Shown here in pieces: positions 1,751-26,740 of a stretch of 54,880 nt of DNA. The position numbers were made by a program, and so were the translations under genes. Within the stretch, counting starts at the first letter, position 1. Each line of letters starts with the position of its first letter. Source of the DNA: a virus; the IMG/VR virus record IMGVR_UViG_3300032323_001970, positions 1 to 54,880 of that record. One strand, 5' to 3'. The notes beneath the pieces were generated by a model. The model searched no databases. It saw only the letters and a program-made list of their open reading frames with translations, and was not told the DNA's origin.

Positions 1751-2085
1751 GCCTCGCACAAGAACAAGCTGCATTCTTGCTGGACCTTTGCAAGCTGGTT
1801 CAGCATGCTACTGAGCAGGGCTGGATGGTCACAGGAGGTGAACTGGCCAGGACTCCTGAGCAACAAGCCATCTACTTTAAGACCGGCCGCAGCAAGACTA
1901 TGAACTCGATTCATTTGAAGCGCTGCGCCGCTGATTTGAACTTTTTCAAAGATGGCAAGATCATTTGGGACAAGGAAATGCTTGCCCCCTTGGGCGCCTA
2001 CTGGGAAGGCTTGCACCCTAAAAATCGTTGGGGCGGGAACTTTAAGAGCCTGGTGGACTGCCCCCACTTCGAGAGGAATGTGTAA
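1747..2085 (+). CDS. Endolysin, M15-family peptidoglycan peptidase
   Basis: I chose the ATG overlapping the holin stop (ATGA), giving 112 residues. It carries the zinc-peptidase pattern of the M15/VanY group: His56 in SIHLKR, Asp63 in AADLNFF and His107 in CPHFE, with WGG (95-97) before the last motif. Such enzymes cut the stem peptide of peptidoglycan (D-Ala-D-Ala or L-Ala-D-Glu bonds). It has no signal peptide, so it needs the holin for release. Length and motif spacing fit single-domain phage endolysins. The cassette order is accessory, accessory, holin, endolysin. Confidence 0.88.
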   Translation: MSLAQEQAAFLLDLCKLVQHATEQGWMVTGGELARTPEQQAIYFKTGRSKTMNSIHLKRCAADLNFFKDGKIIWDKEMLAPLGAYWEGLHPKNRWGGNFKSLVDCPHFERNV

Positions 2086-2738
2086 TGCCACAGGCAATGA
2101 CCTTTGCGTCGCTTCAAAACGACGTCCGCAGTTACCTGGAACGTGGAGCGTCTGCTGTCACTGACCCTTTGGTCTACGCGCAAATTCCGAGCCTGATCAA
2201 CTTTGCAGAGCGTCGCATCAGCCGTGACCTTAAGATTCAGGGCTTTCAGACCGTTGTGGTGACGAATCTGCAAACCGGTGTTGCCGTGCTTGCTAAGCCA
2301 GACCGCTGGCGCGAGACTATCTCGATGAACATCGGAACAGGTACAGGCAACAATACCCGCGTCCAACTATTCTCAAGGGCCTACGAGTATGTGAGAAGCT
2401 ACTGGCCCAATGATACCTTGGTGGATGAGCCTGTGTTTTACGCAGACTACAACTACACAAATTGGATCATTGCTCCTACGCCAGATGCAGCTTACCCGAT
2501 AGAGATCCTGTACTACGAGCTGCCAGTCCTGCTGGATGAAAACACCCAGACCAACTGGCTCACCCAGTACGCTCCCAACTTGCTGCTTTACGCGACCCTG
2601 CTGGAAGCCACTCCATTCTTGAAAAACGACGAACGCATCCCTGTCTGGCAAGGCATGTACGCATCAGCCGCCCAAGCGCTGCAAGGTGAAGACATGAGCA
2701 AGATCTTGGACCGCGGTGCCGTAAGAAACGAGGCCTAA
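2085..2738 (+). CDS. Head-tail adaptor (SU10/gp4-like)
   Basis: The protein has 217 residues and is mostly helical, with an N-terminal region reading VYAQIPSLINFAERRISRDL. The body holds short beta strands with YWPNDTLVDEPVFYADYNY and then ILYYELPVLLDENTQTNW, and the C-terminal helices contain YAPNLLLYATLLEATPFL. This pattern is typical of adaptor proteins that sit below the portal in short-tailed phages of the SU10/P22 gp4 kind. The next genes are fibre and nozzle proteins, which fits. A second adaptor-type gene lies at 49359. Start: ATG overlapping the endolysin stop (TAATG). Confidence 0.65.
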   Translation: MPQAMTFASLQNDVRSYLERGASAVTDPLVYAQIPSLINFAERRISRDLKIQGFQTVVVTNLQTGVAVLAKPDRWRETISMNIGTGTGNNTRVQLFSRAYEYVRSYWPNDTLVDEPVFYADYNYTNWIIAPTPDAAYPIEILYYELPVLLDENTQTNWLTQYAPNLLLYATLLEATPFLKNDERIPVWQGMYASAAQALQGEDMSKILDRGAVRNEA

Positions 2739-2739
2739 T

Positions 2740-3930
2740 ATGACCACTTACACCAACATCTTTGGGGGCAGCAACATCTCTCCTGCAGAGATCAGCTACG
2801 CCGCAGTAAGCCTTACGGCCAACACGACTTTTGACTGGGCGCTTGAGACCGCTCCTTCGACGAACCTGATTGCCGGCATCATGGATGTTACGGCAACAGC
2901 AGGTCCTTGGAGCCTGACTTTGCCAAGCGCTCTTGAGGCATCAACTGGCCAAGCTATCCTGTTTAACAACGTTGGCTCCAATTCCTTTATCATTAGGAAC
3001 GCTGCCGGAGTACAAGTAGCTGCCCCTGCTGCAGGCCAAGTTTGGCAGATCTACCTGACCAACAACACAACTGCAGGCGGCACCTGGCTTGCATTCCAGT
3101 TTGGCGCAGCCCTGTCCACAGCAAATGCCGCGTCTCTAGCAGGGACGGGCTTAATTGCCATTGGCTCCCTTTTGTCGCTGGCCATGCCTGTTACGTTCTT
3201 CGGAAGTAGCTTCACGGCTGGTGTTGACACTCGCGCAAGGACCTTGATTTGGAACGGGGGCGCGGGCACCTTGACCATGGCTACAGCAGGCACCCTTGGC
3301 GACAACTGGTTTTTCCAGCTTCGCAACGAGGGCACGGGCGCCTTGCTGGTTGATCCTCCTGGTTCTCAGACCATCAACGGTTTGTCAACCTTGACTTTTC
3401 AACCGGGCGATTCTGCCATCATTTTTACGGATGGTTTGAACTTCTACACGATTGGCTACGGTCAATCACCCGTTTTTGCGTTTGACTACACGTCAATCAA
3501 CGTAGCGGGATCGGGCAACTATGTGTTGTCGGGCAGCGAACTGAACCGCATTGCTTACAACTTTACCGGGGTCTTGACCGGCAACCGTACGATCATCGTG
3601 CCGCAGACGGTCCAGCAATACTGGGTTGCTAACAATACGACTGGTCCATACACCCTGACTATCAAGACGTCGATTGCCTCGGGTTACACGATCAACCAAG
3701 GCTCGCGGGCCATCTTGTACTCTGACGGCACCAACGTAGTTGCTGCGGATACTGGTGGCGTGGCTGTTCCAATTAGCGTGTCTGACGGCGGCACTGGCGC
3801 CACGACTGCAGGTAACGCGCTCATCAACCTGGGTGGTACGGCAACGGGTATTGCGATCTTTACGGCCGCTTCCCAAGCAGCCGCCCAAGTGGCGATCGGT
3901 TTGGATCCAATTCAAGGCGGAACCTACTAA
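2740..3930 (+). CDS. Tail fibre/appendage protein
   Basis: This 396-residue protein is rich in Gly, Ala, Thr and Asn with beta-strand patterning throughout, as expected for a trimeric fibre or a nozzle-attached appendage. Near residue 350 it carries VPISVSDGGTGATTAGNAL, a stretch widely seen in phage tail fibres, followed by NLGGTATGIAIFTAASQAAA. It starts 1 nt after the adaptor stop and overlaps the nozzle gene (TAATGG). It probably forms part of a host-contact or tail-side structure. The binding target cannot be read from sequence. Confidence 0.7.
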   Translation: MTTYTNIFGGSNISPAEISYAAVSLTANTTFDWALETAPSTNLIAGIMDVTATAGPWSLTLPSALEASTGQAILFNNVGSNSFIIRNAAGVQVAAPAAGQVWQIYLTNNTTAGGTWLAFQFGAALSTANAASLAGTGLIAIGSLLSLAMPVTFFGSSFTAGVDTRARTLIWNGGAGTLTMATAGTLGDNWFFQLRNEGTGALLVDPPGSQTINGLSTLTFQPGDSAIIFTDGLNFYTIGYGQSPVFAFDYTSINVAGSGNYVLSGSELNRIAYNFTGVLTGNRTIIVPQTVQQYWVANNTTGPYTLTIKTSIASGYTINQGSRAILYSDGTNVVAADTGGVAVPISVSDGGTGATTAGNALINLGGTATGIAIFTAASQAAAQVAIGLDPIQGGTY

Positions 3931-5576
3931 TGGCAACCACCCCGGTCATCATCAAGTCGTTGCCGGGTATCAAGCGAGATGGTACCAGGTTCGAGGGAGA
4001 CTACCACGTTGACGGACAATGGGTCCGTTGGCAGCGTGGCCTTCCTCGCAAGGTAGGCGGATATTCCGTTGTCAACCGCTACCTGACCGAGATCAGCCGT
4101 GGCGTAAAGACTTTCACCGAAAATAGCCAGACCTACTTTCACTCTGGAAGTGCCAACTTCCTAGAGAGATTTACCCTGGACCCCAGTGGCAATTCGAGCC
4201 TGATCACGGATCGCACCCCGATCACCTACAACGCCAACGACGACAATCTTTGGCAGTTTGACGTGATCTATGACACGCAGTCAATCCCGGCTGCAAACAT
4301 GCTCGTGGCTCAGGTCGCTCCAAACGCCAATTGCCTCTGCAATACGGGCGGTGGCCAATTGTTCATTGGCTCCATGACCGGAGCTGATCGCCTGACTGAA
4401 GTCACAACGTTTCCGGCTGGCGTGAGCGTGACGGGCGGCGTGGTGTCCCTGCATCCTTATCTGATGTATTTCGGCAATGACGGCACGATTGGATGGTCGG
4501 TGGCCGGAGCCCCAACAAACCTGACGGGCGTAGGATCAGGGAATGCGCGCGTAGCAGGTCAAAAGATCGTTCGTGGTCTTCCCCTTAGGGGCGGTCCAGG
4601 AAACGCGCCAGCGGGCCTCTTTTGGAGCGCAGACGCTGTTATCCGGGCCTCCTTTGTAGGTGGCCAGGAAGTCTTTCAGTTTGACACAATTAGCCCGTAT
4701 TCCAGCATCCTGTCTGCCAATTCCGTTATCGAGTACGACGGCCAGTACTTCTGGCTGGGAACAGACCGGATGCTGATGTTCAACGGCGTGGTCCGCGAGA
4801 TCCCCAACAACCTGAACATCAACTACTTCTATGACGGCTTGAACCGTGAAGCCGCCCAGCGAGTTTGGGCATTCAAGGTTCCCCGGTACGGCGAGATCTG
4901 GTGGTGCTACCCGAGGGGCAACGCTACCGAGTGCACTCACGCCATCATCTACAACATTCGCGAAAACACCTGGTACGACACCGAGCTGCCTAATGGCGGC
5001 AGGACTGCGGGCGAATGGTCTCCCCTGTATGCTGCTCCGCTTTTGTGCGGCATCCAACAATCTACCTTTATCGCCAACAACCGCGTGACCGAGAACGGCG
5101 ACTTGCGGATCACCCAGGACGGCGACCAGCGGATTGTGGTTCCTGAGGAAGGCTATAAGGTCTGGCAGCACGAGCGCGGAGTAAACGAGATCGACGGTCA
5201 GTTCATCACGGCGGTTCCGTCGTTCTTCGAGACGGCCGACATGAGCTACGTGGCAGCTCCCGGAAACGCCCGCGACAAATATATCCGGGTCGAGTTCCTT
5301 GAGCCTGACTTTGTCCAGTCTGGCAACATGACCGTCCAACTGACCGGAAGGGCCAATGCCAAGTCCCTGGAAGTCAACGGACCAGAGCGCGTGATTTTTG
5401 CAAACCCGTCCACTCCTTACGAGCAAGTGGTCTTTTTCAAGGAAGAACGGCGCGAACTGCGGTTTAAGTTTGGCTCAAACACCATCAACGGCGACTACCA
5501 GATGGGCCAGGTCATTGCCCACCTTGGCGAAGCCGATGGAACCGTGCTCGGCGGCCTCAAAGAAAGTTCCACGTGA
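3930..5576 (+). CDS. Tail nozzle/hub protein (P22 gp10-like)
   Basis: This 548-residue protein opens IKSLPGIKRDGTRFEGDYHV followed by GQWVRWQRGLPRKVGGY, a beginning I associate with the DNA-stabilisation/tail-hub proteins of short-tailed phages. Repeated blade-like strands follow (YFHSGSANFLERF, LHPYLMYFGNDGTIGWSV, DGQYFWLGTDRMLMFNGVV, WWCYPRGNATECTHAIIY), consistent with a beta-propeller. The C-terminal part is a further beta domain. The protein would close the tail channel after packaging. It sits between adaptor/fibre genes and ejection proteins. The family call is by pattern, not alignment. Confidence 0.7.
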   Translation: MATTPVIIKSLPGIKRDGTRFEGDYHVDGQWVRWQRGLPRKVGGYSVVNRYLTEISRGVKTFTENSQTYFHSGSANFLERFTLDPSGNSSLITDRTPITYNANDDNLWQFDVIYDTQSIPAANMLVAQVAPNANCLCNTGGGQLFIGSMTGADRLTEVTTFPAGVSVTGGVVSLHPYLMYFGNDGTIGWSVAGAPTNLTGVGSGNARVAGQKIVRGLPLRGGPGNAPAGLFWSADAVIRASFVGGQEVFQFDTISPYSSILSANSVIEYDGQYFWLGTDRMLMFNGVVREIPNNLNINYFYDGLNREAAQRVWAFKVPRYGEIWWCYPRGNATECTHAIIYNIRENTWYDTELPNGGRTAGEWSPLYAAPLLCGIQQSTFIANNRVTENGDLRITQDGDQRIVVPEEGYKVWQHERGVNEIDGQFITAVPSFFETADMSYVAAPGNARDKYIRVEFLEPDFVQSGNMTVQLTGRANAKSLEVNGPERVIFANPSTPYEQVVFFKEERRELRFKFGSNTINGDYQMGQVIAHLGEADGTVLGGLKESST

Positions 5577-5800
5577 TCACGCAGCCCGTTATAATTGGTT
5601 TGCGCGATTGGGCCGACCAGATCGTTATGGACCTGTCCACCTATGGCGCACTCGCAAGGCTAGACGATGAAGACAAGTGGCAAGAATGGGCACTGCAATT
5701 CTGCGTTATCTCGGGATTGAGCCAGAAAAACATTCCAGATCCATTTGACTTTGCTGACTGGCGCAGTTGGGCGCAACGCTTCGTACAAATGGTGGACTAA
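5573..5800 (+). CDS. Small protein of unknown function upstream of the ACP
   Basis: The protein has 75 residues. It starts at a GTG that overlaps the nozzle stop (GTGA) and ends by overlapping the ACP start (TAATG). It is helical and Trp-rich (DWADQIVMDLSTYGALARL, WQEWALQFCVISGLSQ, FADWRSWAQRFVQMVD). I do not recognise the family. Its tight coupling to both neighbours suggests co-translation with the nozzle and the acyl carrier protein. Confidence 0.7.
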   Translation: MITQPVIIGLRDWADQIVMDLSTYGALARLDDEDKWQEWALQFCVISGLSQKNIPDPFDFADWRSWAQRFVQMVD

Positions 5801-6090
5801 TGACCGATCAAGAATTTATTCAGCTACTGAATGACGTAGCTAAAAAAGCCAAGCCGTTTAACCGCGAGCTTAAACAAATTGACTCCATGGACATGGTCCT
5901 TAAGGAGACTGGCCTAGACAGCCTAGACATGCTGATGTGCACCGTCTATCTGTGCGAAATCTACAACGTAGAAGATGAAAAAAGCAAGGAAATGCAGGGC
6001 GAGACCCCGCAAGACCTGTTTAATTTCTTGAAGGAATGGGGGCGCAGACAGCCCACTGACCTGGCCCAGGCCAAGGAGTGGTTTGTATGA
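5800..6090 (+). CDS. Acyl carrier protein
   Basis: I chose the ATG overlapping the previous stop, giving 96 residues. It is acidic and helical, with the ACP signature: ETGLDSLDMLMCTVYLCEIY, in which Ser41 of the DSLD motif matches the serine that carries 4'-phosphopantetheine. Helix III and IV equivalents follow (TPQDLFNFLKEW). A 16-residue C-terminal extension goes beyond a usual 75-80-residue ACP. The next gene encodes a ketoacyl synthase and overlaps this one by 4 nt, so this is a carrier/condensing-enzyme pair. A phosphopantetheinyl transferase is not seen, so loading would rely on the host AcpS. Placement among tail genes is unusual. Confidence 0.82.
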   Translation: MTDQEFIQLLNDVAKKAKPFNRELKQIDSMDMVLKETGLDSLDMLMCTVYLCEIYNVEDEKSKEMQGETPQDLFNFLKEWGRRQPTDLAQAKEWFV

Positions 6091-7208
6091 GAATCTTCCT
6101 CACCGAAAGCCGCACTGCGTGCACTGAGGACACGATTCTCTTCGAGAACCATACTTTTCCCCAAAAAGTCCACCTGTTTCCAGAGACCTATAACCGGGTC
6201 AAGACAGGCCTGGTCAATCCGGCTCACCAAGTAGCCGAAAAAGTCTTAGATCCTGACCTTCTGAAGCGCCTTCGGGAGACCCAGACCGGCAAGACTGCCT
6301 TCCTCCTGGCCGCTGGAAACAGCAATTTTGCCAACGAAGGCTCCAAGCTCAACCGCGAGAATGAATGGACCTACAACTACAAGGTCCTTCCGCTGTCCCT
6401 GACCCAGATCTATGCCGGTCGGGTTGCCGCGCAGTGCGGAGAAATTGACCACACGGCTACGGATGCTACCGCCTGTACTTCTAGCCTCAAGGTCTTGATG
6501 GACGTCCAAACCCTCATCAAGTTCTACGGCTTCGACCGGGTCATCGTACTGGCCGTCGAGGACCAGGTGAACAACATGACCCTCCAGTTCTTTGGAGAAG
6601 CCAAGGCGACTTTGACAGAAAGCATGGCCGAGGCTCACCAGGTGAGCCCCAGTGCATTCGATTCCAAGAACTTTGGGTTTTATATAGGTCAAGGCGCCGT
6701 GTTGGCCGTATTTGAGTCAGAAGAAGCCGTAAGGCGCGGCACTTTTCCTGCTAGGGCAGAACTTGTGTCGGCCTGGACGGCAACCGAAGTGGCTACAAAT
6801 GCTATCGGTCAACGAGAAGACGGGCAAGGGTTTAGACGAGCCATCGAGGGCGCGCTGAAACTTTGTCAAGTTTCTTCAGAACAAATTAAAATCGTGAAAA
6901 CTCATGGCACCGGTACCCGGTCTAACAATGATGCCGAAAAGGCGGCTTTGGAAAGGTGCTTGAGTGGGTTTGTAGCGACATCGTATAAGCAACGAATCGG
7001 CCATACGATGGGAGCGAGCGGACTGTTAGAGACCCTCTTGCTGTTCAATGATTTAGAAAAGGGAACTGTCCCTGGGATCTTGAATCGGACTGAAGAGGAT
7101 CATGTGTTCCTCTCTGAAGCGGTTGAAGCACCTAAAGGGATGGTGTTAAGCTTGAGTGCTGGCATGGGCAACGTGTTCAGTGCTGCGCTTTTCAACATGA
7201 GGATCTAA
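6087..7208 (+). CDS. Beta-ketoacyl-ACP synthase (KAS/FabF-like)
   Basis: This 373-residue protein has a thiolase-fold condensing-enzyme layout. The nucleophile is Cys130 in TDATACTSSLK. His273 lies in KTHGTGTRSNNDAE. Lys301 and His306 lie in YKQRIGHTMGASGLLE, with the five-residue K-to-H spacing of FabF. GQGAVLAVFE (about 201-210) matches the GAG strand of the family. All Cys-His-His-Lys residues are kept, so it should be able to condense acyl thioesters. Differences are a short N-terminus compared with about 410 residues in FabF, and LSAGMGNVFSAALF in place of the usual GFGGTN gating loop, suggesting an altered acyl substrate. The ATG at 6087 overlaps the ACP stop with AAGGAG upstream; a GTG nine bases earlier is possible. 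The next gene encodes an unrecognised protein. Confidence 0.85.
   Translation: MRIFLTESRTACTEDTILFENHTFPQKVHLFPETYNRVKTGLVNPAHQVAEKVLDPDLLKRLRETQTGKTAFLLAAGNSNFANEGSKLNRENEWTYNYKVLPLSLTQIYAGRVAAQCGEIDHTATDATACTSSLKVLMDVQTLIKFYGFDRVIVLAVEDQVNNMTLQFFGEAKATLTESMAEAHQVSPSAFDSKNFGFYIGQGAVLAVFESEEAVRRGTFPARAELVSAWTATEVATNAIGQREDGQGFRRAIEGALKLCQVSSEQIKIVKTHGTGTRSNNDAEKAALERCLSGFVATSYKQRIGHTMGASGLLETLLLFNDLEKGTVPGILNRTEEDHVFLSEAVEAPKGMVLSLSAGMGNVFSAALFNMRI
6632..6648. repeat. 17-bp perfect palindrome inside the KS gene, shared with the 33.25-kb intergenic region
   Basis: GGCTCACC, a central A, then GGTGAGCC. Together with flanking bases, a 23-nt stretch (6631-6653) recurs at 33254-33276 with a single difference. 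The coding phase here reads AEAHQVSPS. The role is unknown; it could be an operator or processing hairpin. Confidence 0.6.
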
Positions 7209-7210
7209 CT

Positions 7211-7669
7211 ATGCCGCTCGTAGACAGCAGACAACAAATGCTTGACCTTGGCGAGCTACTGAAGGTAGCAGCTGAGAACACAAAATCCGAGTACCCGATG
7301 GAATTCGTGTACGCCACCTTTGTCAAGGAGGTGCAGATGCCGGACAGCAAGTTCTACCGCTACGGCAACACTGTCTACGTCGTGCATGGTTCGGAAAAAA
7401 CTCCTCGCAAGGGCATGTTTAGAGCACTGAACGCAGACACCGCCCCAAATTTTCTAGCTTCAGGTTTTGCTTTTGTCGTCGACGCCTACAAGGCCGGTTT
7501 CGACACGCTGGTCACCCAGTTCAGTGACCAAAGCCTGTTGAACATCTTCCGCAACGTTGCAAAGAACCCGCCAAACCCTGGCATGGGCTACAACGTCACC
7601 ATGCTGGCCGATGGCCAATACCAGGTGGCTTTGCAACTCGGACAAAAACGTGAAGGAGCACGGCAATGA
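7211..7669 (+). CDS. Unknown protein following the KS gene (possible acyltransferase-like fold)
   Basis: This 152-residue alpha/beta protein starts 2 nt after the KS stop and overlaps the next start (ATGA). The middle runs VYATFVKEVQMPDSKFYRYG, NTVYVVHGSEKTPRKGMFRA, and a helix with FAFVVDAYKAGFDTLVTQFS, then LLNIFRNVAKNPPNPGMGYN and a final beta hairpin. The order of strands and the GFD helix faintly recall GNAT acyltransferases, which would suit a KS/ACP neighbour. No acetyl-CoA loop motif (R/Q-x-x-G-x-G/A) is visible, so I do not assign it. Similar-sized genes often precede ejection proteins, so a virion role is the alternative. Confidence 0.7.
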   Translation: MPLVDSRQQMLDLGELLKVAAENTKSEYPMEFVYATFVKEVQMPDSKFYRYGNTVYVVHGSEKTPRKGMFRALNADTAPNFLASGFAFVVDAYKAGFDTLVTQFSDQSLLNIFRNVAKNPPNPGMGYNVTMLADGQYQVALQLGQKREGARQ

Positions 7670-9735
7670 GTGCTGTAGTAGATTTTGTTGAAGACGTTGT
7701 TGGCGGCGTAGTTGAAGCCGTCGGCGATGTTGTTGATAGCGTCGTTGACGTTGTCAAAGACGTTGGCAGGGCCATCGACGATTACGTCATTCAGCCTATC
7801 CTAGATGATCCGCTATCGGCAATCGCAACCGTAGCCGGCGCATATTTCCTTGGGCCTGCAGCAGCCAGTATGTTTGGCACGTCGGCAACTGTTGGGGCCG
7901 GCATTGCTGCTGGCGCGGCAAACACGGCCGCCGGCCTTGTGCAAGGCGAAGATTTTGATGAGGCGCTCAAGGGCGGTATTGCTGCTGGCGTCGGCACTTG
8001 GGCCGGAGGAGAACTGACCAACGCGCTTACTGGGGGTTCTTCGGCTGCAGCCACTCCAACGGATCCGCTTGATGATTTCCTGGCAGCCAACAATAACTTT
8101 GTTGACGTGCCGATGGACGTTGCTGTAACTCCTCCTGCATCGGCAGTGGCAAGCCCTGTGGACTTGACCACTCCAATGGGAACTGATCTTCCTCCTCTTG
8201 GAGGTGAGGTGCCTGCAGCTTCTCCTGCCGCGATGACGCCTGCGTCGGCAACCCCTGTGTCTACTTCGCCGCTTGAGTCACTTGCGCCTCCGGCTGACGC
8301 GGCCGCTGCAGCAGCAACTCAAAGTCCTTTGCAGTCGCTGGGTACTGCAGTTCCTACTGTAGACGTGCCCACGTTTACTTCGGGCCTAGACACTTCGTTT
8401 GCTCCTAACTACGACCTGTCAGCTGGCATCAAACCTTCTACTGGTCTGCAGGTTCCGCAGTTTACGGGCGGCGACGCCTTTGACATCTACGGCAATCCCA
8501 GCTACAGCGTAACCCCTCCAGGTGTGTCAGGCGGTCCTGGCCTGCAATTTCCAGATGCTCCTAACCTCGCTCGCATGGGAGGCGGTCAGGGCATCACTGC
8601 AGACGTTAGCGGCATGCCTGAGTTCCGCTACAGCGAGGCCTCACTTGATCCTTCACTCCGTGGTCAGACTGATACCTGGCAAAGCGGCGGCAAGACTTAC
8701 GGGGCTGCAACACCTGACGTCACGATCAGCTCAAGCGGCATTACGCCAACGCCAGATACGATCACCTACGACCCCACGACCAACATGGGTACTCCCAGCG
8801 CTTGGGATCAGTTGACAAGCGGAAACGTTGTGGACGCGGCAAAGACGGTCGGCAGCAACGCTGTTGATTGGGTCAAAGCAAACCCATGGACGGCAGCAAG
8901 CACGGCTCTTACGGCTACCAGCTTGCTTGGCGGTCCTGGCGCTCCTTCTAATCAGGCACCGGCCACAAGAGGTTCTACTCAAGACAAGAACTTCAACAAG
9001 TCGCTTGACCTGTATGAGTACATGCGCGACAAGACCAACTATGCCGGAGATTTGGCCAAGTACGGCCAAATAGGCCAAGGAACTCCTGGCGAGCACCAGT
9101 TCTTCCAGAACACTCGCTTTGTGCCAATACCGATTCCCGGTCAAACGCCCACTCCTGCAAAGATGGGTGGCCTGATCCAGATGAAGCATTACGCTCAAGG
9201 CGGTCAAGTTCAAGGCATGCAAGATCCTCGTCGCGCTCAGCTGATGGCAGCCATGGCGCAGCAACGTCCTGCCGGTCAAGGTGGTCCTTTGGGCATGGCT
9301 CAAGGGCGTCCTCCCATGACTCAGGGCGGGATGATGCCTGGTCGCCCGATGCAGCCGCAAAACGCACAAGGCATGCAGCAACAAGCTCGTCCTCAAGCGC
9401 CTCAGCGTTCTCGCGATCCTAAGATGGCCTACTACCAGTATGGCAATCCTCCTGCTCAAGCGAAAGCCATGGGCGGACTTAGCCAAGTGCAAAGTATGCG
9501 GATTGGCGGAGGTGCCGATGGTCGCTCTGATGACGTGAACGCAGTCTTGTCTGACGGCGAATACGTGATGGACGCGGAGACAGTGGCGATGCTTGGCAAC
9601 GGCTCCTCTAAGGCCGGGGCCAAAAAACTTGACGACATGCGCTCTAAGTTGCGTCAACACAAAGGCAAGAATCTTGCAAGCGGCAAGATCAGCCCTGACG
9701 CCAAGAGTCCGCTGGCTTATTTGAAGGGAGCTTGA
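7666..9735 (+). CDS. Internal virion/ejection protein I
   Basis: The protein has 689 residues. The first 40 residues are an amphipathic valine-rich repeat (VVEAVGDVVDSVVDVVKDVG), then an Ala/Gly-rich membrane-active-looking segment to about residue 95. Next is a low-complexity Pro/Ala/Thr linker (about 115-230). The C-terminal 80 residues form a compact domain (GRSDDVNAVLSDGEYVMD, then ETVAMLGNGSSKAGAKKL) that I have seen repeatedly in internal proteins of short-tailed aquatic phages. A Met/Gln/Gly-rich stretch (about 510-590) precedes it. This fits a protein packed in the capsid and ejected with the DNA. Four such genes follow one another. Confidence 0.65.
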   Translation: MSAVVDFVEDVVGGVVEAVGDVVDSVVDVVKDVGRAIDDYVIQPILDDPLSAIATVAGAYFLGPAAASMFGTSATVGAGIAAGAANTAAGLVQGEDFDEALKGGIAAGVGTWAGGELTNALTGGSSAAATPTDPLDDFLAANNNFVDVPMDVAVTPPASAVASPVDLTTPMGTDLPPLGGEVPAASPAAMTPASATPVSTSPLESLAPPADAAAAAATQSPLQSLGTAVPTVDVPTFTSGLDTSFAPNYDLSAGIKPSTGLQVPQFTGGDAFDIYGNPSYSVTPPGVSGGPGLQFPDAPNLARMGGGQGITADVSGMPEFRYSEASLDPSLRGQTDTWQSGGKTYGAATPDVTISSSGITPTPDTITYDPTTNMGTPSAWDQLTSGNVVDAAKTVGSNAVDWVKANPWTAASTALTATSLLGGPGAPSNQAPATRGSTQDKNFNKSLDLYEYMRDKTNYAGDLAKYGQIGQGTPGEHQFFQNTRFVPIPIPGQTPTPAKMGGLIQMKHYAQGGQVQGMQDPRRAQLMAAMAQQRPAGQGGPLGMAQGRPPMTQGGMMPGRPMQPQNAQGMQQQARPQAPQRSRDPKMAYYQYGNPPAQAKAMGGLSQVQSMRIGGGADGRSDDVNAVLSDGEYVMDAETVAMLGNGSSKAGAKKLDDMRSKLRQHKGKNLASGKISPDAKSPLAYLKGA

Positions 9736-9736
9736 T

Positions 9737-11305
9737 ATGGGTGTTCTGGACTTTTTGTTCCAGGGGGCACCACCTCCGTCGGTCACGACGTATGGTGAGA
9801 CGACTTCCAACGTTCCCGCCTGGTATTCTGACTACACGCAGGGCTTGATCAGCAGGGCGAACGCCATTGCGGCAGAGCCTTATCAGCCGTACACCCAGGC
9901 CAGGATTGCCGGTTACGACCCGCTTCAGACAAGGGCGTATGAGAACACGTCCAATCTTGCGGGAACGTACCAGCCGCTGATGGACATGTCAAGAAATGCC
10001 ATCTACAACGCAGGAGCTGGCAGCTCTGTTGGTGCTGCTCAACCTTACATCACTCAGGCTCTTCAGTACAACCCGTACAACGCAGCTTCTGGTGCCATTG
10101 GCCAAGCAAGCAATTTGATTGGTCAGAGCTATGGCGACACGAGCTCCCTGGCTCAGCCCTACTTCAATCAGGCCAATCAGTTGACTGGTCAGGCGATGCA
10201 GTCGGCAGCTGGCTTGGCTACGCCTTATTTGAATCAGGCGGCTATGGGTGCAGCACAAGCAGGTTCTGCCAATACGGCAGGCCTTGCTCAGCCCTACATG
10301 CAGCAAGCATCTCAGCTCTCGAGCCAAGGTGCTCAGACTGGTTTGGGCGGCATCCAGGACTACATGAATCCCTACCAGGAGCAAGTGGTCAACCGCATTG
10401 GCGATTTGGCAAGCCGCAACCTGCGTGAGAACTTGCTGCCCAACATCCAAGACCGCGCCATTCAAGCGGGTACGTTTGGCGGCAGCCGTAGTGGTGAGGC
10501 CATCGGACGCGCTTTGCGAGACACCCAAGAATCTACACTTGCTCAACAGACTGCGGCCCTCCAACAGGGCTACACGCAAGCTGGTCAGCAACTGCAAGCC
10601 GATCGAGCCCGTCAGTTGCAAGCTGCCCAACAGCAGGCTGGTTTTGGTCAACAGGCGGCCGGCATGTCGGCTGCAGATCAAGCGCGCCTGCTTCAGGCAA
10701 GCGGCCAACTGGCCGGTATCGGTCAAACCACCGCAGGCCTTACGGCAGCAGACTACCAACGCATGTTGGCAGGAGCCCAGCAACAGGCGGCCATGGGTCA
10801 ATCGGCAGCAGGCTTGAAAGGTGCAGACCTTGCAAGATACGGTCAGGCCGGCGCTCAAATGGGTGCCCTTGGTCAGATGCAAGGCAACTTGGCAGGCGCA
10901 GCAGGAACCCAAAATCTGCAAGCCGCCCAACAAATGGGTGCCCTGTCTAATCAAGACTTTGCTCGCATGCTGCAGTCTGGTCAAGCTATGGGTGCCCTTG
11001 GTCAACAAACCCAGCAGATGGGCCTGCAAAACATTGCAGCTCTTGAGGCTGCGGGCGCGGGTCAGCAACAGCAAACCCAGCGTTCGTTGGATCAGGCTTA
11101 CCAAGACTTCTTGAATCAACGCGAATACGACCGCAACAACATCGCTTTCCTGAATGCGGCTGTTCGCGGTCTGACTGTTCCGACCTCTACAACTACGGCT
11201 TCAACGGGTCCTGCAAGCGTGTATCAGCCATCTCCATTGTCGCAATTCGGCTCTGCTCTGGCTACAGGCTACGGTTTCAACAAGATGTTTGGCGGCGGAA
11301 GATAA
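9737..11305 (+). CDS. Internal virion/ejection protein II, Gln/Ala-rich repeats
   Basis: This 522-residue protein starts MGVLDFLFQGAPPPSVTTYG, then SNVPAWYSDYTQGLISRANA. Much of it is long helical Gln/Ala/Gly repeats with recurring AAGL, GQAM and MGALGQ units (about 100-200 and 300-440). Between them is a non-repetitive block (DYMNPYQEQVVNRIGDLASR, then PNIQDRAIQAGTFGGSRSGE) that looks like a conserved core. The repeats would form extended helices or coiled coils, as in core proteins that line an ejection channel. No enzyme motif is seen. Confidence 0.65.
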   Translation: MGVLDFLFQGAPPPSVTTYGETTSNVPAWYSDYTQGLISRANAIAAEPYQPYTQARIAGYDPLQTRAYENTSNLAGTYQPLMDMSRNAIYNAGAGSSVGAAQPYITQALQYNPYNAASGAIGQASNLIGQSYGDTSSLAQPYFNQANQLTGQAMQSAAGLATPYLNQAAMGAAQAGSANTAGLAQPYMQQASQLSSQGAQTGLGGIQDYMNPYQEQVVNRIGDLASRNLRENLLPNIQDRAIQAGTFGGSRSGEAIGRALRDTQESTLAQQTAALQQGYTQAGQQLQADRARQLQAAQQQAGFGQQAAGMSAADQARLLQASGQLAGIGQTTAGLTAADYQRMLAGAQQQAAMGQSAAGLKGADLARYGQAGAQMGALGQMQGNLAGAAGTQNLQAAQQMGALSNQDFARMLQSGQAMGALGQQTQQMGLQNIAALEAAGAGQQQQTQRSLDQAYQDFLNQREYDRNNIAFLNAAVRGLTVPTSTTTASTGPASVYQPSPLSQFGSALATGYGFNKMFGGGR

Positions 11306-11314
11306 GGACACAAC

Positions 11315-14300
11315 ATGGCACTAGAAGACGACGAGTCTGGCCTGGAAGTCAGTTCTACTGACCAAACCAGCGGAGCTCAGACGCTTGGTTACACCTCCTC
11401 GCGAGGTGCGGCCAATCCGTATACTGGGCAGCTTCAAACCCTACTCAAGAAATACCTTGAAAACACTGACAAAGCAGCGACTGATAAACAAGCCTTGTTG
11501 GATAAGGCGCGTGAGCGGGTCATGGCTAGGTCCGCTGGTCCGGATCAGGCAGAGATGGCGTTCCGTCTTGCGGCTGCTCTCGGTAAGCCTACTCGCACTG
11601 GTAGCTTTGGCGAGACAATTGGTAACGTTGCCGAAGCGACTGGCGAGGCTCTTGCTCAGCGCCGTAAAGCGTCGCAAGAACTAGAAGAGCTTAACCTCAA
11701 GTACCAGCTGGCGGCGGCCGATACCAAAGGCGAAGGTCAAAGAGCGCAGATCAGTGCCCTGTCTGCTCTGGCTAAGTCGACTCCTAAAGATCGCCTGACT
11801 GAGATTGAGAAGCTTCAAGAGATCATTGAGGATCCCAAAGCTTCTGAGAGCGCCAAAAAGAATGCGCAAGCCCGTATCACCTTTTTGACCGTTCGTCCTT
11901 CTGCTGTCAAGACCACTGAGATCGAGCAGCTGCTCGAAAAAATCAACGACCCAAATGTGTCGCCGGCAAACAAGAGGGTCTACCAGCAGCGACTCAACAA
12001 GCTGAACTACATTGCACCTGAAGCTAAGGCAGATCGAGATGCTGGTAAGCCGCAATCGCCTGCTGGCAAGATTGCTGTTGACGAAGGATTTGTTCCCGGG
12101 ACCCCTGATTATCAGAAGCGCGTCAAGGCTTTGACCGGTGATGGTAAGGGGGTGACCCTGAGCGCCACCGAGCAAAAAGAACTGTTTGAGGCTCAAGACG
12201 TTGTCAACGCCAGTAAGTCCGTGCTCCTCAACTTGAGCAAGGCCCTGGAGCTGAACGACAAGGCCTATTCTGGTTTTGCAGCAGGGGCCCGCAGAACTAT
12301 CGCCCGTAACATTCCTGGCGTCAGCGAATCGGAAGGCGTTACTGCAACGACCGAAATTGAATCCTTGGTCATCACCAATTCGCTTGACCAGTTGAAAGCC
12401 ATCTTTGGTGGAGCCCCAACCGAAGGCGAACGCAAGATCTTGCTCGACATCCAAGGCTCGATCAACATGAGCCCTGCCGAACGCAAAAAAGTTTGGGAGA
12501 GCGCCATGCAGGCCGCGGCTCGCCGCATGAGGTCCAGCGAAGCCAAGATGGCCAACATTCGCAAGGGGGCGTACAGCCGGGTTGTGCCTGAAGGCAACGC
12601 CGATGGCGGCCTGGTCGGTTATGCCGACGGCGGACCTGTGCACATGTCCAACGGCGGCGAGTTCTCGATGGCAAACCTGGGCCGCGCAGTTGGTCAGGGC
12701 TTGGGCCTTGGTTTTGGCGACGAGGCCATCGCCCGTGTTCGCGCCAAGATGGAAGGACGTCCCTACGAAGACGTGGTCCGTGAGGAACGTGAAGCCTACC
12801 AACGCTTCCAGGAAAAAAATCCGTTTATCGCCCTTGGCACCGAGCTAGTGTCTGGCATTGTTCCAACCGTCGGCATGGCGCTGATTCCAGGAGCAGGTAC
12901 TCCAGGAGCCGTGGCCGGGTCTGCTCGCATGGGAATGGCGGCCCAGAAGCTTGCTCAATATATGCCCGGGTTCATGAAGGGTTCGATGGGCAAAGCTGCT
13001 GGCACCGCGGCTGCAACAGGTGCCGTGGCAGGAGCCGGTTCTGCAACTGAAGGCCAACGCACTTCTGGGGCTGTCACTGGCGGCGCAACTGGTGCGGTCC
13101 TTGGCCCCACGGTTGCAAAGACCGTTCAGCTGGGCGGACAAGGCGTCAAGGCCGTCAAGAACGCGATTCAGCCATCTCCAAATGCCGTGGAGCAACGCGC
13201 GACCAATAAGGTATTGGAAGCCATGGGCCGGGACGAGATGGGCGTCCAGGAACTTCGTGACCGCATGCTGGCAGACCAGAAGCTTGGCGTGCAGTCCACT
13301 ATTATGGATGCAACGCCGTCCCTGTCTACGCTTGGTGAAGCCGTAGTGACTCGCCCGGGACCAGGTCGCAAGATCTTGGGAGAAGGCCTGAATGAACGCC
13401 TGGAAACGGGCCGCGAATCAGCTGCTGCCAGGGCCCTGAAGGACGTTGGAAAAGGCGTGGATTACACGGCACAAGAAGACAAGCTGATTGGAACCTTGCG
13501 CGCCAATGCCAACAACCTCTACGACAAGGCCTACGCTCATGGTTCTGTGGATGATACCCGCATCCTGAAGGTCTTGGAAGACGACACCTTCAAAAGGGCG
13601 TTCAGGGAAGCTCAGGCCATTGCCAGCAAAGAAGCACGGGCAGCAGAACTTCGTGGCGAAGACGCTAGCCGCTTCAAGTTGAACGACATCTATGATGTCG
13701 ATGACAAGGGCAACCTGATCACCGTTGGCAAGATCCCTGACGTCCGCACCCTTGACTACATCAAGCGGGGCATCGATGCCATCATCGACAAGGGCTACAA
13801 AGGCGAAGGCATGTCCAAGGCCGAAGCCAATGCGCTTAAGGACCTTAAGAAAGCCTTCGTTAGTGTCATCGACGAGAACGTGCCGGAATACGCAGGGGCA
13901 CGAGCTAGGTATGCCGGCGACATAGAAGTTTTGGACGCTCTTCGTTTAGGTCGTACAGACTACCTTACTCCGAAGATGCTGCCGGCAGAAGCCAAAAAGC
14001 TGGTTGACGGCATGTCTGATGCCGAGCGCGACGCCTTGCGTGCGGGTGTGGCTCAGTCGCTTTTGACCAAGGTTCTTGACGCGCCCCAGCAAGTCAATGC
14101 GGCCCAGCGAATCATTGGAGCCCCGGCGACTCGCAAACGTTTGGAGGCCTTGTTCCAAGACCCCAACGAGTACAAACTGTTTGAGGCGGCCCTGCAGCGC
14201 GAGTCCGAGTTGTTCCGCAACGCCCAGGACATTGCTCGTGGAAGCCGCACGGCCAATAAGACGGCTGCCCTGGCCGACCTCAAGGCTGGCAATGGCATCT

Positions 14301-14665
14301 TCGACATCGCTGGCGAAGCAGTTGACATTGCAACGGGTTCACCCGGCTCTGTGGTCGGACGCGTCTTGAAGTACCTGCAGGCTCGCACATCTCTTGACGA
14401 GAAGACTGCCGGCGAAGTGGCTAAGATGCTGAAGTCAGGTACGATGCAGGAGGTCGATGATACCCTGAAGCGGCTTGAATCTAGCAGTGCCAGGTTCTTG
14501 GAAGAAAAGAAGGCCTCAGCAGGTCGCTTAAGAACAACCGCCGGCGCAGTTGGTGCCGCGGCTCCGACTACTGACCGGGCCGCTTCAGAATCAGAGGCCC
14601 CGGTTGATGAGGACGAGGACGCTAGGCTCCAAAGGCTCTTGGAAAAGTACAACATAGAGGAATAA
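11315..14665 (+). CDS. Internal virion/ejection protein III
   Basis: The protein has 1116 residues and is mostly helical and charged. A glycine-rich hinge near 425-445 (DGGLVGYADGGPVHMSNGGE) separates two halves. After it comes GLGFGDEAIARVRAKMEGRP and then a hydrophobic, glycine-zipper-like stretch (about 500-600: VSGIVPTVGMALIPGAG, AATGAVAGAGSATEG) that could insert in membranes. The remainder is helical with no catalytic motif. The C-terminus is acidic (DEDEDARLQRLLEKYNIEE). Size, hydrophobic zipper and position argue for an ejected internal protein. It starts 9 nt after the previous gene; AAGGA precedes the ATG. Confidence 0.62.
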   Translation: MALEDDESGLEVSSTDQTSGAQTLGYTSSRGAANPYTGQLQTLLKKYLENTDKAATDKQALLDKARERVMARSAGPDQAEMAFRLAAALGKPTRTGSFGETIGNVAEATGEALAQRRKASQELEELNLKYQLAAADTKGEGQRAQISALSALAKSTPKDRLTEIEKLQEIIEDPKASESAKKNAQARITFLTVRPSAVKTTEIEQLLEKINDPNVSPANKRVYQQRLNKLNYIAPEAKADRDAGKPQSPAGKIAVDEGFVPGTPDYQKRVKALTGDGKGVTLSATEQKELFEAQDVVNASKSVLLNLSKALELNDKAYSGFAAGARRTIARNIPGVSESEGVTATTEIESLVITNSLDQLKAIFGGAPTEGERKILLDIQGSINMSPAERKKVWESAMQAAARRMRSSEAKMANIRKGAYSRVVPEGNADGGLVGYADGGPVHMSNGGEFSMANLGRAVGQGLGLGFGDEAIARVRAKMEGRPYEDVVREEREAYQRFQEKNPFIALGTELVSGIVPTVGMALIPGAGTPGAVAGSARMGMAAQKLAQYMPGFMKGSMGKAAGTAAATGAVAGAGSATEGQRTSGAVTGGATGAVLGPTVAKTVQLGGQGVKAVKNAIQPSPNAVEQRATNKVLEAMGRDEMGVQELRDRMLADQKLGVQSTIMDATPSLSTLGEAVVTRPGPGRKILGEGLNERLETGRESAAARALKDVGKGVDYTAQEDKLIGTLRANANNLYDKAYAHGSVDDTRILKVLEDDTFKRAFREAQAIASKEARAAELRGEDASRFKLNDIYDVDDKGNLITVGKIPDVRTLDYIKRGIDAIIDKGYKGEGMSKAEANALKDLKKAFVSVIDENVPEYAGARARYAGDIEVLDALRLGRTDYLTPKMLPAEAKKLVDGMSDAERDALRAGVAQSLLTKVLDAPQQVNAAQRIIGAPATRKRLEALFQDPNEYKLFEAALQRESELFRNAQDIARGSRTANKTAALADLKAGNGIFDIAGEAVDIATGSPGSVVGRVLKYLQARTSLDEKTAGEVAKMLKSGTMQEVDDTLKRLESSSARFLEEKKASAGRLRTTAGAVGAAAPTTDRAASESEAPVDEDEDARLQRLLEKYNIEE

Positions 14666-19173: not shown

Positions 19174-20160
19174 ATGGCTCACGAAGTTGAAACGATGGCT
19201 TACGCCAATGAGACCCCTTGGCATGGCCTTGGCACCCCCGTCGCTGACAACCTGACCCCCGCCCAGATGCTTGATGCAGCTGGCCTCAACTGGAAAGTTC
19301 AAAAGAAGGCTCTGGTCGTTGACGACCTTGACCACGTCCTGACCAGCCACTACGCCCTGGTTCGCGACACGGACAGCAAGATCCTGGGCGTCTGCGGCAG
19401 CGAATACACGCCTACGCAAAACAGCGACGTCTTCGAGTTCTTCGAAAAGTTCTGCAAGGCCGGCGACATGAAGATGGAAACCGCCGGTTCCCTTTGCGAA
19501 GGCAAGCGCGTTTGGGGCCTTGCCAAGATCAACGGCGGCTTCATGCTGGGCGGCAAAGACGAAGTCGAGGGCTACATCCTCCTTGACAACCCCCACATCT
19601 GGGGCCGCAGCCTGCAGATCCTGTTCACCCCGATCCGCGTGGTTTGCAACAACACGCTGACGGCCGCTCTTCGGAACAATACGAACAAGGAAAACACTTT
19701 CCGCATGTCGCACGATCGCGCGTTTGACGACGAGATCAAGCAAACGGCAGCAGAAAAAGTCGGCCTTGCCATGAAGTCGCTAGACGTCTTCAAGCAGCAG
19801 GCCGAGTTCCTGTCCAAGAAGAAGGCCACGGACCAAAAGGTCATGGAGTTCTTCAGCAACTTGGTCAATCCCACCCAGTACCAAGCCGCTCTGGTCGATT
19901 CAGAAGCCGGCGAAGTCAACCGCGCAGATCTTGGCCGCACGGTCAACCGCCTGCTCGACATCGTGCACACCCAACCAGGAGCTGATCTGAAGACTTCAGC
20001 CGGAACCTGGTGGGGAGCATTCAACGCCGTGACGTACTACTACGACCACGTCGCCGGAACTGATCAGGACAAGCGTCTGACAAGCGCATGGTTTGGTTCA
20101 GCCGCCACCCGTAAGCGCCAAGCACTTGACCTCGCCGTCGAGTTCGCCGAAGCAGCCTAA
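19174..20160 (+). CDS. DUF932 / phage-plasmid-like protein (TIGR03299 type)
   Basis: This 328-residue protein opens with the family's usual beginning: MAYANETPWHGLGTPVADNL. Further family-like stretches are SHYALVRDTDSKILGVCGSE followed by YTPTQNSDVFEFFEKF, and ILFTPIRVVCNNTLTAAL. Members occur as early, highly expressed genes in many phages and plasmids. The biochemical role is not established; links to recombination or anti-restriction have been proposed. It is the first gene after promoter P1 and is followed by a UUCG hairpin, so it probably makes its own abundant transcript. SD-like AAAGAGAGAAA precedes the ATG. Confidence 0.88.
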   Translation: MAHEVETMAYANETPWHGLGTPVADNLTPAQMLDAAGLNWKVQKKALVVDDLDHVLTSHYALVRDTDSKILGVCGSEYTPTQNSDVFEFFEKFCKAGDMKMETAGSLCEGKRVWGLAKINGGFMLGGKDEVEGYILLDNPHIWGRSLQILFTPIRVVCNNTLTAALRNNTNKENTFRMSHDRAFDDEIKQTAAEKVGLAMKSLDVFKQQAEFLSKKKATDQKVMEFFSNLVNPTQYQAALVDSEAGEVNRADLGRTVNRLLDIVHTQPGADLKTSAGTWWGAFNAVTYYYDHVAGTDQDKRLTSAWFGSAATRKRQALDLAVEFAEAA

Positions 20161-25885: not shown

Positions 25886-26199
25886 CCGTTTATGTCGTAC
25901 AAGAATCGCCGAAGTTCAATCTGCTGCCTGCAGCCGATTACGGCGACCTGCAAACGCTGCTGCCACCAGGCCAAGTGATGATGGCAACAGCGCCAACAAT
26001 CCGTATCTTGCGTGACAAGCTGCGGAATTTTTCGGACAGCGATTACCTGTTGGCTATTGGTGACCCCATTGCCATCGGCATGTCCGTCGCAATTGCTGCT
26101 GGCTTCAATAGCGGCAAGATCAGGATGCTCAAGTGGGATCGCCAAGAGCATCGTTACTACGCCCTTGAGGCAGACCTTACAGGAGCAAGAAATGCTTGA
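25882..26199 (+). CDS. Conserved phage protein of unknown function
   Basis: The 105-residue protein runs MTVYVVQESPKFNLLPAADY, then LQTLLPPGQVMMATAPTIRI and LRNFSDSDYLLAIGDPIAIG, ending RMLKWDRQEHRYYALEADL. I know similar small proteins from replication modules of aquatic podoviruses but no function. It looks like a compact alpha/beta domain with no metal ligands. Its ATG overlaps the nuclease stop, and its end overlaps the next start by 8 nt. Confidence 0.78.
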   Translation: MTVYVVQESPKFNLLPAADYGDLQTLLPPGQVMMATAPTIRILRDKLRNFSDSDYLLAIGDPIAIGMSVAIAAGFNSGKIRMLKWDRQEHRYYALEADLTGARNA

Positions 26200-26740
26200 A
26201 CAGGAAATGTTGGCCGACAGTCAGATGCCATCTGACCAAGGCCTCGGCAAGATCAGTACGCTTGCAGAGCGCTACACAGATCTTGATGAAGAGATCACAG
26301 AAGTTGAAAAACGACTGAAGTCTCTGAAGGAACAGGCCCGGGAGATTGCTGAAAAGCAGTTGCCTGAAGCCATGGCAGAAATTGGTGTTGCAAAGTTTAC
26401 GCTTACAGACGGCAGCGAAGTGACCGTCAAACCGTACTACAGCGCCAAGATCAGTGACGAGAAACGTGACGAGTGCTTTACCTGGTTGCAAGACCATGGT
26501 CACGAAGCGCTGATTAAAGACGAAGTCGTCCTGACATTCAATCGCGGTGAACACGACAAGGCAGAAGAATTCAAAGCCCGGCTGGAAGAGCAGGGACTGG
26601 AATATTCTGGCAAGATGGGTGTTCATCCTCAGACTTTGACAGCATTCGTCAAAGAGCAAGTGGAAAGCGGAGCCGAATTTCCCCTTGAACTTTTCAACGT
26701 GTACATCGGCCAAATCGCCAAAGTCAAAAGGAGTAAGTGA
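26192..26740 (+). CDS. Coiled-coil protein of the replication operon (possibly Gam-like)
   Basis: This 182-residue protein starts at an ATG with AGGAG 6 nt upstream, inside the end of the previous gene. Residues 28-62 form a coiled coil (DEEITEVEKRLKSLKEQA). A mixed alpha/beta domain follows (AKFTLTDGSEVTVKPYYSAK, then CFTWLQDHGHEALIKDE) with a Gly-rich PQTLTAFVKEQVESGAEF near the end. The helix-then-small-beta-domain layout recalls phage Gam-type or DUF7173-type proteins. I would not go beyond an accessory role in replication or protection of DNA ends. It overlaps the SSB-like gene by 1 nt. Confidence 0.72.
   Translation: MLEQEMLADSQMPSDQGLGKISTLAERYTDLDEEITEVEKRLKSLKEQAREIAEKQLPEAMAEIGVAKFTLTDGSEVTVKPYYSAKISDEKRDECFTWLQDHGHEALIKDEVVLTFNRGEHDKAEEFKARLEEQGLEYSGKMGVHPQTLTAFVKEQVESGAEFPLELFNVYIGQIAKVKRSK

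What the first reader, a model, noticed from the sequence alone, without database searches (positions are those of the whole stretch)
5800..7208. Acyl carrier protein and ketoacyl synthase pair inside the virion gene block
Two overlapping genes encode an ACP (DSLD serine kept) and a condensing enzyme with the full Cys130/His273/Lys301/His306 set. They lie between the tail nozzle gene and the ejection-protein genes, not with metabolic genes. No other fatty-acid genes are nearby, so the pair may draw on the host pathway to make one special acyl chain. Possible uses are acylating a virion protein so that it inserts into the membrane during DNA ejection, or changing host lipids late in infection. 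The altered gating loop (GMGNVF instead of GFGGTN) suggests a non-standard substrate. Co-translation with structural genes argues for a virion-linked role.
Basis: partly seen in the sequence, partly recalled or inferred. Interest (0 to 1): 0.9.

Follow-up and report, generated by a model that had tools for sequence, protein, structure and literature searches.

The report
Phage enzyme pair building special acyl chains
A large group of mostly uncultured bacterial viruses carries its own carrier protein and chain-building enzyme of the fatty-acid type, usually right beside virion genes and a predicted acyl-transferring enzyme, which suggests that these viruses make their own lipid-like tag, perhaps for the proteins that carry DNA through the host membrane.

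Summary
Window 5800-6090 encodes an acyl carrier protein (ACP) and 6087-7208 a ketosynthase (KS) with every catalytic residue. It is no artefact: 585 stretches in IMG/VR encode KS relatives. In 106 distinct full-length KS, Cys130, His273, Lys301, His306 and the altered gate Met360-Gly-Asn never vary. ACP lies directly upstream in 126 of 127 loci. These KS form one phage clade apart from 11 cellular KS.

The gene after that, an ejection-protein candidate, starts M-[S/G/A]-A-V-V in nearly all of 109 homologues, followed by an amphipathic helix.

Best reading: ACP-KS makes a dedicated acyl-ACP from host precursors and the GNAT-like protein moves the acyl group to a virion protein, perhaps that N-terminus. 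Enzymatic competence is well supported; product and acceptor are inferred. Against a strictly virion role: the cassette sits in early gene blocks in two relatives, is absent from the virion block in one lineage, and one clade lost KS but kept ACP. Host-lipid remodelling is the main rival.

The parts
5800..6090 (+). Acyl carrier protein (ACP), 96 aa; phosphopantetheine site Asp40-Ser41-Leu-Asp
   Evidence: D40 and S41 are the only invariant columns in 49 homologues; PDB profile search finds ACPs; present directly upstream of KS in 126 of 127 loci with enough sequence
6087..7208 (+). Ketosynthase (condensing enzyme, FabF-like fold family), 373 aa; Cys130, His273, Lys301, His306; gate loop A-G-Met360-G-N
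   Evidence: Pfam PF00109/PF02801 above cut-off; catalytic residues invariant in 106 distinct full-length homologues; one phage clade against 11 cellular KS, support 100/100
7211..7669 (+). GNAT-fold protein, 152 aa, candidate acyltransferase; canonical CoA loop replaced by LNADTAxN
   Evidence: AlphaFold2 pLDDT 91; Foldseek PDB matches with E <= 0.001 are GNAT-fold proteins; directly downstream of KS in 107 of 122 loci
7666..9735 (+). Ejection-protein candidate; conserved N-terminus M-S-A-V-V followed by an amphipathic helix; candidate acyl acceptor
   Evidence: N-terminal motif in 103 of 109 distinct homologues, 5 more with close variants; hydrophobic moment 0.5-0.65 over the first ~35 residues; position before the phrog_4287 ejection protein
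5573..5800 (+). 75-aa protein of unknown function, conserved upstream neighbour
   Evidence: present in most loci, also where ACP-KS is absent from this place
3930..5576 (+). P22 gp10-like tail nozzle / stabilization protein
   Evidence: phrog_3287 virion structural protein 6.7e-32; homologue in MW202545 annotated 'phage stabilization protein'
9737..11305 (+). DNA ejection protein
   Evidence: phrog_4287 'DNA ejection protein' 1.4e-6

Best explanation
The pair is an enzymatically competent phage-owned ACP-KS cassette. A host phosphopantetheinyl transferase converts the ACP to holo form (inferred). The ACP is loaded with malonyl and acyl groups from the host type II fatty-acid pathway, and the KS condenses them to a beta-ketoacyl-ACP that the host may reduce (inferred from the kept Cys-His-His-Lys set). 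The adjacent GNAT-fold protein then transfers the acyl group from the phage ACP, not from CoA, to a protein acceptor made in the same operon. The likeliest acceptor is the N-terminus M-[S/G/A]-A-V-V of the ejection protein encoded next, whose amphipathic N-terminal helix would thereby bind or cross the host membrane during DNA ejection. Shown here: genes, conservation, catalytic residues, purifying selection, linkage, GNAT fold prediction, conserved acceptor-like N-terminus. Inferred: chemistry, transfer step, acceptor, role in ejection.
For: Catalytic residues and the AGMGN gate invariant in 106 KS. ACP D-S invariant. ACP-KS linkage in 126 of 127 loci and GNAT-fold gene next in 107 of 122. 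GNAT model pLDDT 91 with acyltransferase matches. The CoA loop is missing, as CoA-binding elements are in ApxIC, an RtxC acyltransferase, a family that uses acyl-ACP (PMC8339906). A second lineage whose only detected similarity to the window is ACP and KS also has ACP-KS followed by a small protein with weak GNAT-like matches. After loss of KS in one clade the ACP stays next to the GNAT gene under purifying selection, dN/dS about 0.1, as expected if ACP serves the GNAT protein. In L103 the triplet ACP-KS-GNAT is recognisably conserved while the neighbouring tail proteins are not detected by BLAST. Downstream protein N-terminus conserved over otherwise divergent sequences and amphipathic.
Against: No biochemical or virion data. 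The GNAT-fold gene and the conserved N-terminus also occur where ACP-KS is absent from the block (L166, L176, L195-L205), so neither strictly needs the cassette. ACP-KS lies in early or replication blocks in L209 and L090, away from the GNAT gene. The p7211 and A6 families show no profile similarity to each other, and the A6 model is only moderately confident (pLDDT 75). GNAT folds are common in phages and may be structural.
Confidence: 0.38

Rival explanations
1. Host lipid remodelling: the phage ACP and KS act as an auxiliary metabolic pair that raises or redirects chain elongation in the host fatty-acid pathway late in infection, changing membrane lipids for lysis or phage production. The virion-block position is only a convenient late-expressed insertion site.
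For: The cassette is mobile and found in several settings, including early blocks; ACP, fabF and fabG occur in other phages and were read as metabolic (PMC8224337, PMC11705849). KS alone can stimulate elongation only with host FabG/FabZ/FabI, which hosts have (established knowledge).
Against: A phage needing more host-type elongation would be expected to carry a host-like FabF; this KS is a deep phage-only clade with an altered gate and a divergent ACP of its own. The recurring GNAT-fold neighbour is left unexplained.
Confidence: 0.33
2. Inhibition or decoy: phage ACP and KS sequester malonyl groups, phosphopantetheine or host partners (KS acting as a malonyl-ACP decarboxylase, for example) to stop host fatty-acid synthesis.
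For: The KS retains both histidines needed for malonyl decarboxylation; the gate residue is changed.
Against: An inhibitor would not need its own ACP with a conserved phosphopantetheine serine; ACP persists after KS loss.
Confidence: 0.1
3. Small-molecule product: beta-ketoacyl-ACP from the pair is used by the GNAT-fold protein to acylate a metabolite (an acyl-amino acid or an acyl-homoserine-lactone-like signal).
For: AHL synthase TofI (3p2h) is among the Foldseek matches; 3-oxoacyl-ACP is a known donor for LuxI-type enzymes (established knowledge).
Against: TofI ranks with generic GNAT matches and superposes poorly (rmsd 10 A); the GNAT gene sits with ejection genes even without ACP-KS.
Confidence: 0.08
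4. Structural use: the proteins are virion or assembly components whose folds were co-opted and catalysis is irrelevant.
For: Placement among virion genes.
Against: All four KS catalytic residues and the ACP serine are invariant over very divergent sequences.
Confidence: 0.04

Closest known systems
FabF / KAS II beta-ketoacyl-ACP synthase (E. coli FabF; TIGR03150)
   Same: Same fold family, Cys-His-Lys-His set, best sequence relatives among solved structures
   Different: Distant in sequence, shorter N-terminal region, far below the FabF equivalog cut-off (111.5 against 493.75 bits), gate Phe400 replaced by Met in AGMGN, Ile108 replaced by Asn or Gly; separate phage clade
Prophage fabG-acpP-fabF clusters in Rhodobacteraceae (PMC8224337)
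   Same: ACP next to a ketosynthase in a phage genome
   Different: That cluster includes fabG in the order of the bacterial operon; here no reductase, ACP-KS is phage-specific and lies mostly in the virion block next to a GNAT-fold gene
ACP genes in other phages, e.g. Alteromonas phage R22Y gp30 (PMC11705849)
   Same: A phage-encoded ACP reported as an auxiliary metabolic gene
   Different: No KS partner mentioned in the passages read; sequence relation to this ACP not tested
RtxC toxin-activating acyltransferases (HlyC, ApxIC)
   Same: Works like: GNAT fold without CoA-binding elements, acyl-ACP donor, acylates a membrane-active protein encoded in the same operon (PMC8339906)
   Different: No sequence relation claimed; to my knowledge they use the host ACP and have no dedicated KS
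P22 and T7 pre-ejection genes (P22 gene 14, T7 gene 13)
   Same: Similar position just before ejection-protein genes (from memory); a DUF2824 phage protein appears among weak structural matches
   Different: No ACP or KS in those phages (from memory); no Pfam or PHROG match of the window's GNAT-fold protein

Membership tests
Beta-ketoacyl synthase superfamily (PF00109/PF02801) | Pfam domains above curated cut-off | tested here: met
   33.6 and 61.3 bits against 20.8
Beta-ketoacyl synthase superfamily (PF00109/PF02801) | Catalytic Cys-His-His with conserved Lys | tested here: met
   aligned to E. coli FabF C163/H303/K335/H340; invariant in 106 homologues and kept in two other phage groups
FabF (KAS II) equivalog | Score above TIGR03150 cut-off | tested here: not met
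   111.5 against 493.75 bits
FabF (KAS II) equivalog | Gating loop GFGGTN with Phe400 | tested here: not met
   AGMGN in 106 of 106
Acyl carrier protein (PP-binding) | DSL serine for phosphopantetheine | tested here: met
   D40, S41 invariant
Acyl carrier protein (PP-binding) | Match to ACP family profile | tested here: inconclusive
   window protein alone has no PF00550 match; 19 of 49 homologues match weakly; reverse profile search finds PDB ACPs at 8e-5
Acyl carrier protein (PP-binding) | Phosphopantetheine attached in vivo | not testable with these tools
   needs mass spectrometry
GNAT acyltransferase fold (gene 7211-7669) | GNAT fold | tested here: met
   pLDDT 91 model; 38 PDB matches with E <= 0.001, GNAT-fold proteins; TM-scores moderate, best about 0.57
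GNAT acyltransferase fold (gene 7211-7669) | CoA pyrophosphate loop Q/RxxGxG/A | tested here: not met
   LNADTAxN at that place in the alignment
RtxC (HlyC-like) acyltransferase | Sequence homology and catalytic His/Ser set | not tested
   only a functional analogy is proposed
Fatty-acid auxiliary gene cluster (fabG-acpP-fabF) | fabG or other elongation genes present | tested here: not met
   no such domain in the window proteins scanned or in the part of MW202545 shown; small ORFs not scanned

The most novel reading that the evidence does not exclude
Phages carry a dedicated acylation module (own ACP, own ketosynthase, GNAT-fold transferase) that lipid-tags the N-terminus of an ejection protein so that it enters the host membrane: a virus-encoded protein lipidation pathway with its own acyl carrier.
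Probability: 0.27. Interest if true: 0.93.

Novelty: new variant of a known kind. Interest (0 to 1): 0.78.

Why it matters
How short-tailed phages get DNA and ejection proteins through the cell envelope is only partly understood. A phage-owned acyl-carrier module beside ejection genes would give those proteins a lipid anchor and would be a new kind of virus-directed protein modification. Even under the rival reading, a widespread phage-only ketosynthase clade with an invariant, unusual gate is a new enzyme family whose product can be tested directly in vitro.

Tried and rejected
Assembly artefact or chance: rejected, many independent contigs. Inactive pseudo-enzyme: rejected, residues invariant. 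Host-acquired FabF: not supported; a motif scan of 84,980 species genomes gave relatives in only three contigs, all phage-like, and the tree separates phage from cellular KS (only 11 cellular rows). Other hits in INPHARED at 22-28% identity are unannotated records in which the match is probably cellular FabF carried over (not followed up). Strict virion linkage: rejected by L209, L090, L195-L205. Sequence link between the two third genes (A4 against A6): none found. A scan with the L105 KS found no viral relatives. Literature searches found no report of this pair in a virion block. Prior mentions of fabF in phages: PMC7029224, PMC10653327, PMC12783922. L105 KS was left out of the second tree because of its long branch.

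Full report
Observation. The window is a 54,880-base virus record. ACP is 5800-6090 and KS 6087-7208, both on the + strand, in a chain of overlapping or closely spaced genes: p5573 (5573-5800), ACP, KS, 7211-7669, 7666-9735. A promoter-pattern scan gave nothing above chance in 2000-12000. KS passes both Pfam ketoacyl synthase cut-offs; its PHROG, 35856 (1.9e-39), is of unknown function. It is FabF-like but far below the FabF equivalog cut-off. The ACP is too divergent for Pfam on its own, but its family profile retrieves PDB acyl carrier proteins with the phosphopantetheine serine aligned.

Spread. One protein query gave 56 IMG/VR loci; a profile query matched 588 stretches, 585 of them relatives (the best 80 were read). 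Together with later scans I read 134 distinct KS proteins, 106 full-length of the main clade. Cys130, Lys271, His273, Lys301, His306, Met360, Gly361 and Asn362 are present in all 106; residue 78, the counterpart of FabF Ile108, is Asn in 102. ACP is directly upstream in 126 of 127 loci with enough sequence: 114 by the strict rule, and 12 more in which only the mechanical choice of a longer KS reading frame shifted the distance. The exception is L105. Median dN/dS against the window is 0.077 for KS and 0.086 for ACP; synonymous sites are near saturation for some pairs.

The third gene. In 107 of 122 loci the next gene is a homologue of 7211-7669. The window protein has no Pfam or PHROG match. 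AlphaFold2 on 38 homologues gave pLDDT 91; PDB matches with E <= 0.001 are GNAT-fold proteins (best 9.0e-5, TM 0.57), and phage proteins match in BFVD. The loop that binds CoA pyrophosphate in GNATs is replaced by a conserved LNADTAxN. The RtxC acyltransferases, such as ApxIC, are a precedent for a GNAT fold without CoA elements in a family that takes acyl-ACP (PMC8339906).

The candidate acceptor. The gene after it (7666-9735) varies greatly, yet 103 of 109 distinct homologues start M-[S/G/A/T]-[mostly A]-[mostly V]-[V/A], and five others are close variants; the exception has an uncertain start. By comparison 41 of 2,266 internal Met positions match the same pattern. I defined the pattern after seeing it, and small residues at position 2 are common in bacteria, so this is a lead, not a test. 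The first 35 residues form a strongly amphipathic helix if helical (moment 0.5-0.65).

Natural variation. (a) In L119, L121, L123 and L145 the KS has been deleted, leaving a scar that still reads QIKMIKTHGA or close to it; a KS remnant with stops is also seen in the L122 record. ACP remains, with dN/dS about 0.1 within this clade, so it has a use without KS. (b) In L195-L205, and in L166 and L176, neither ACP nor KS lies between the p5573-like gene and the GNAT gene. The L202 record carries ACP-KS elsewhere, after an SNF2-like helicase on the other strand. (c) L090 has ACP-KS in an early block with a DNA methyltransferase and no GNAT gene next to it. (d) L104 and L180-L194, a lineage in which 25 window proteins find only ACP and KS (tested on L104 and the L191 record), have ACP-KS followed by a 110-132-residue protein; in L104 and L191 the portal gene follows. 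Catalytic residues are kept. That small protein gave a pLDDT 75 model with weak matches, mostly GNATs, AcrVA5 first at 0.018. (e) L105 has a lone KS near structural and lysis genes. ACP-KS is thus a mobile two-gene cassette that most often sits beside a GNAT-fold gene.

Origin. In 84,980 species genomes, motif-bearing relatives turned up in only three contigs, all phage-like. Twenty-seven phage KS form one side of a branch against 11 cellular KS with support 100/100. Cellular sampling is small, and the donor is unknown.

Mechanism. Shown: intact sites, selection, linkage, fold prediction. Inferred: holo-ACP by a host transferase, condensation with host malonyl and acyl groups, transfer by the GNAT-fold protein, an N-terminal acceptor, and a role in membrane passage. 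I put 0.38 on this chain as a whole and 0.33 on host-lipid remodelling; the two are not fully exclusive. The gate change (Phe to Met) and Asn/Gly for Ile108 suggest a substrate pocket unlike FabF's; which acyl chain fits cannot be told from sequence.

Limits. No host is known and no isolate was found; the one close GenBank record, MW202545, is from spring water with no host. Collections returned at most 80 loci per scan, closest first, so the loci read are not a random sample. Only two structures could be predicted, so KS and ACP folds rest on sequence. Small window ORFs were not scanned for fatty-acid genes.

Noticed in passing
L119 5672-6001, L121, L123, L145: KS deleted with a short scar of its own sequence left between ACP and the GNAT-fold gene; ACP kept under purifying selection.
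   Followed up: yes
L209 6751-8156 (minus strand), record of L202: ACP-KS sits directly after an SNF2-like helicase gene instead of in the virion block.
   Followed up: partly
L090 5722-7115: ACP-KS in an early block with a C5-type DNA methyltransferase and a nuclease-like gene; no GNAT-fold gene next to it.
   Followed up: partly
L212 2234-5008 (minus strand); L187 from 8373: In the second lineage a long virion-type protein starts MGFI[S/A]SV followed by a hydrophobic stretch, reminiscent of an N-acylation site.
   Followed up: partly
window 7666-9735 and homologues: N-terminal V/D/G/A repeats giving a long amphipathic helix, conserved although the rest of the protein diverges.
   Followed up: partly
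window 11315-14665: Large protein matching PHROGs of unknown function, with sub-threshold chorismate mutase matches (residues 99-159).
   Followed up: no
window 19174-20160, 26012-27510: DUF932 gene and two genes like phage Pam3 gp33 and gp34 in the replication block; possible lead to the host.
   Followed up: no
window 27785-29308: TOTE-type archaeo-eukaryotic primase domain beside UvrD and SNF2 helicases.
   Followed up: no
MW202545.1 (L058): KS is annotated about 150 bases short at its start and ACP left as hypothetical protein in the public record.
   Followed up: no
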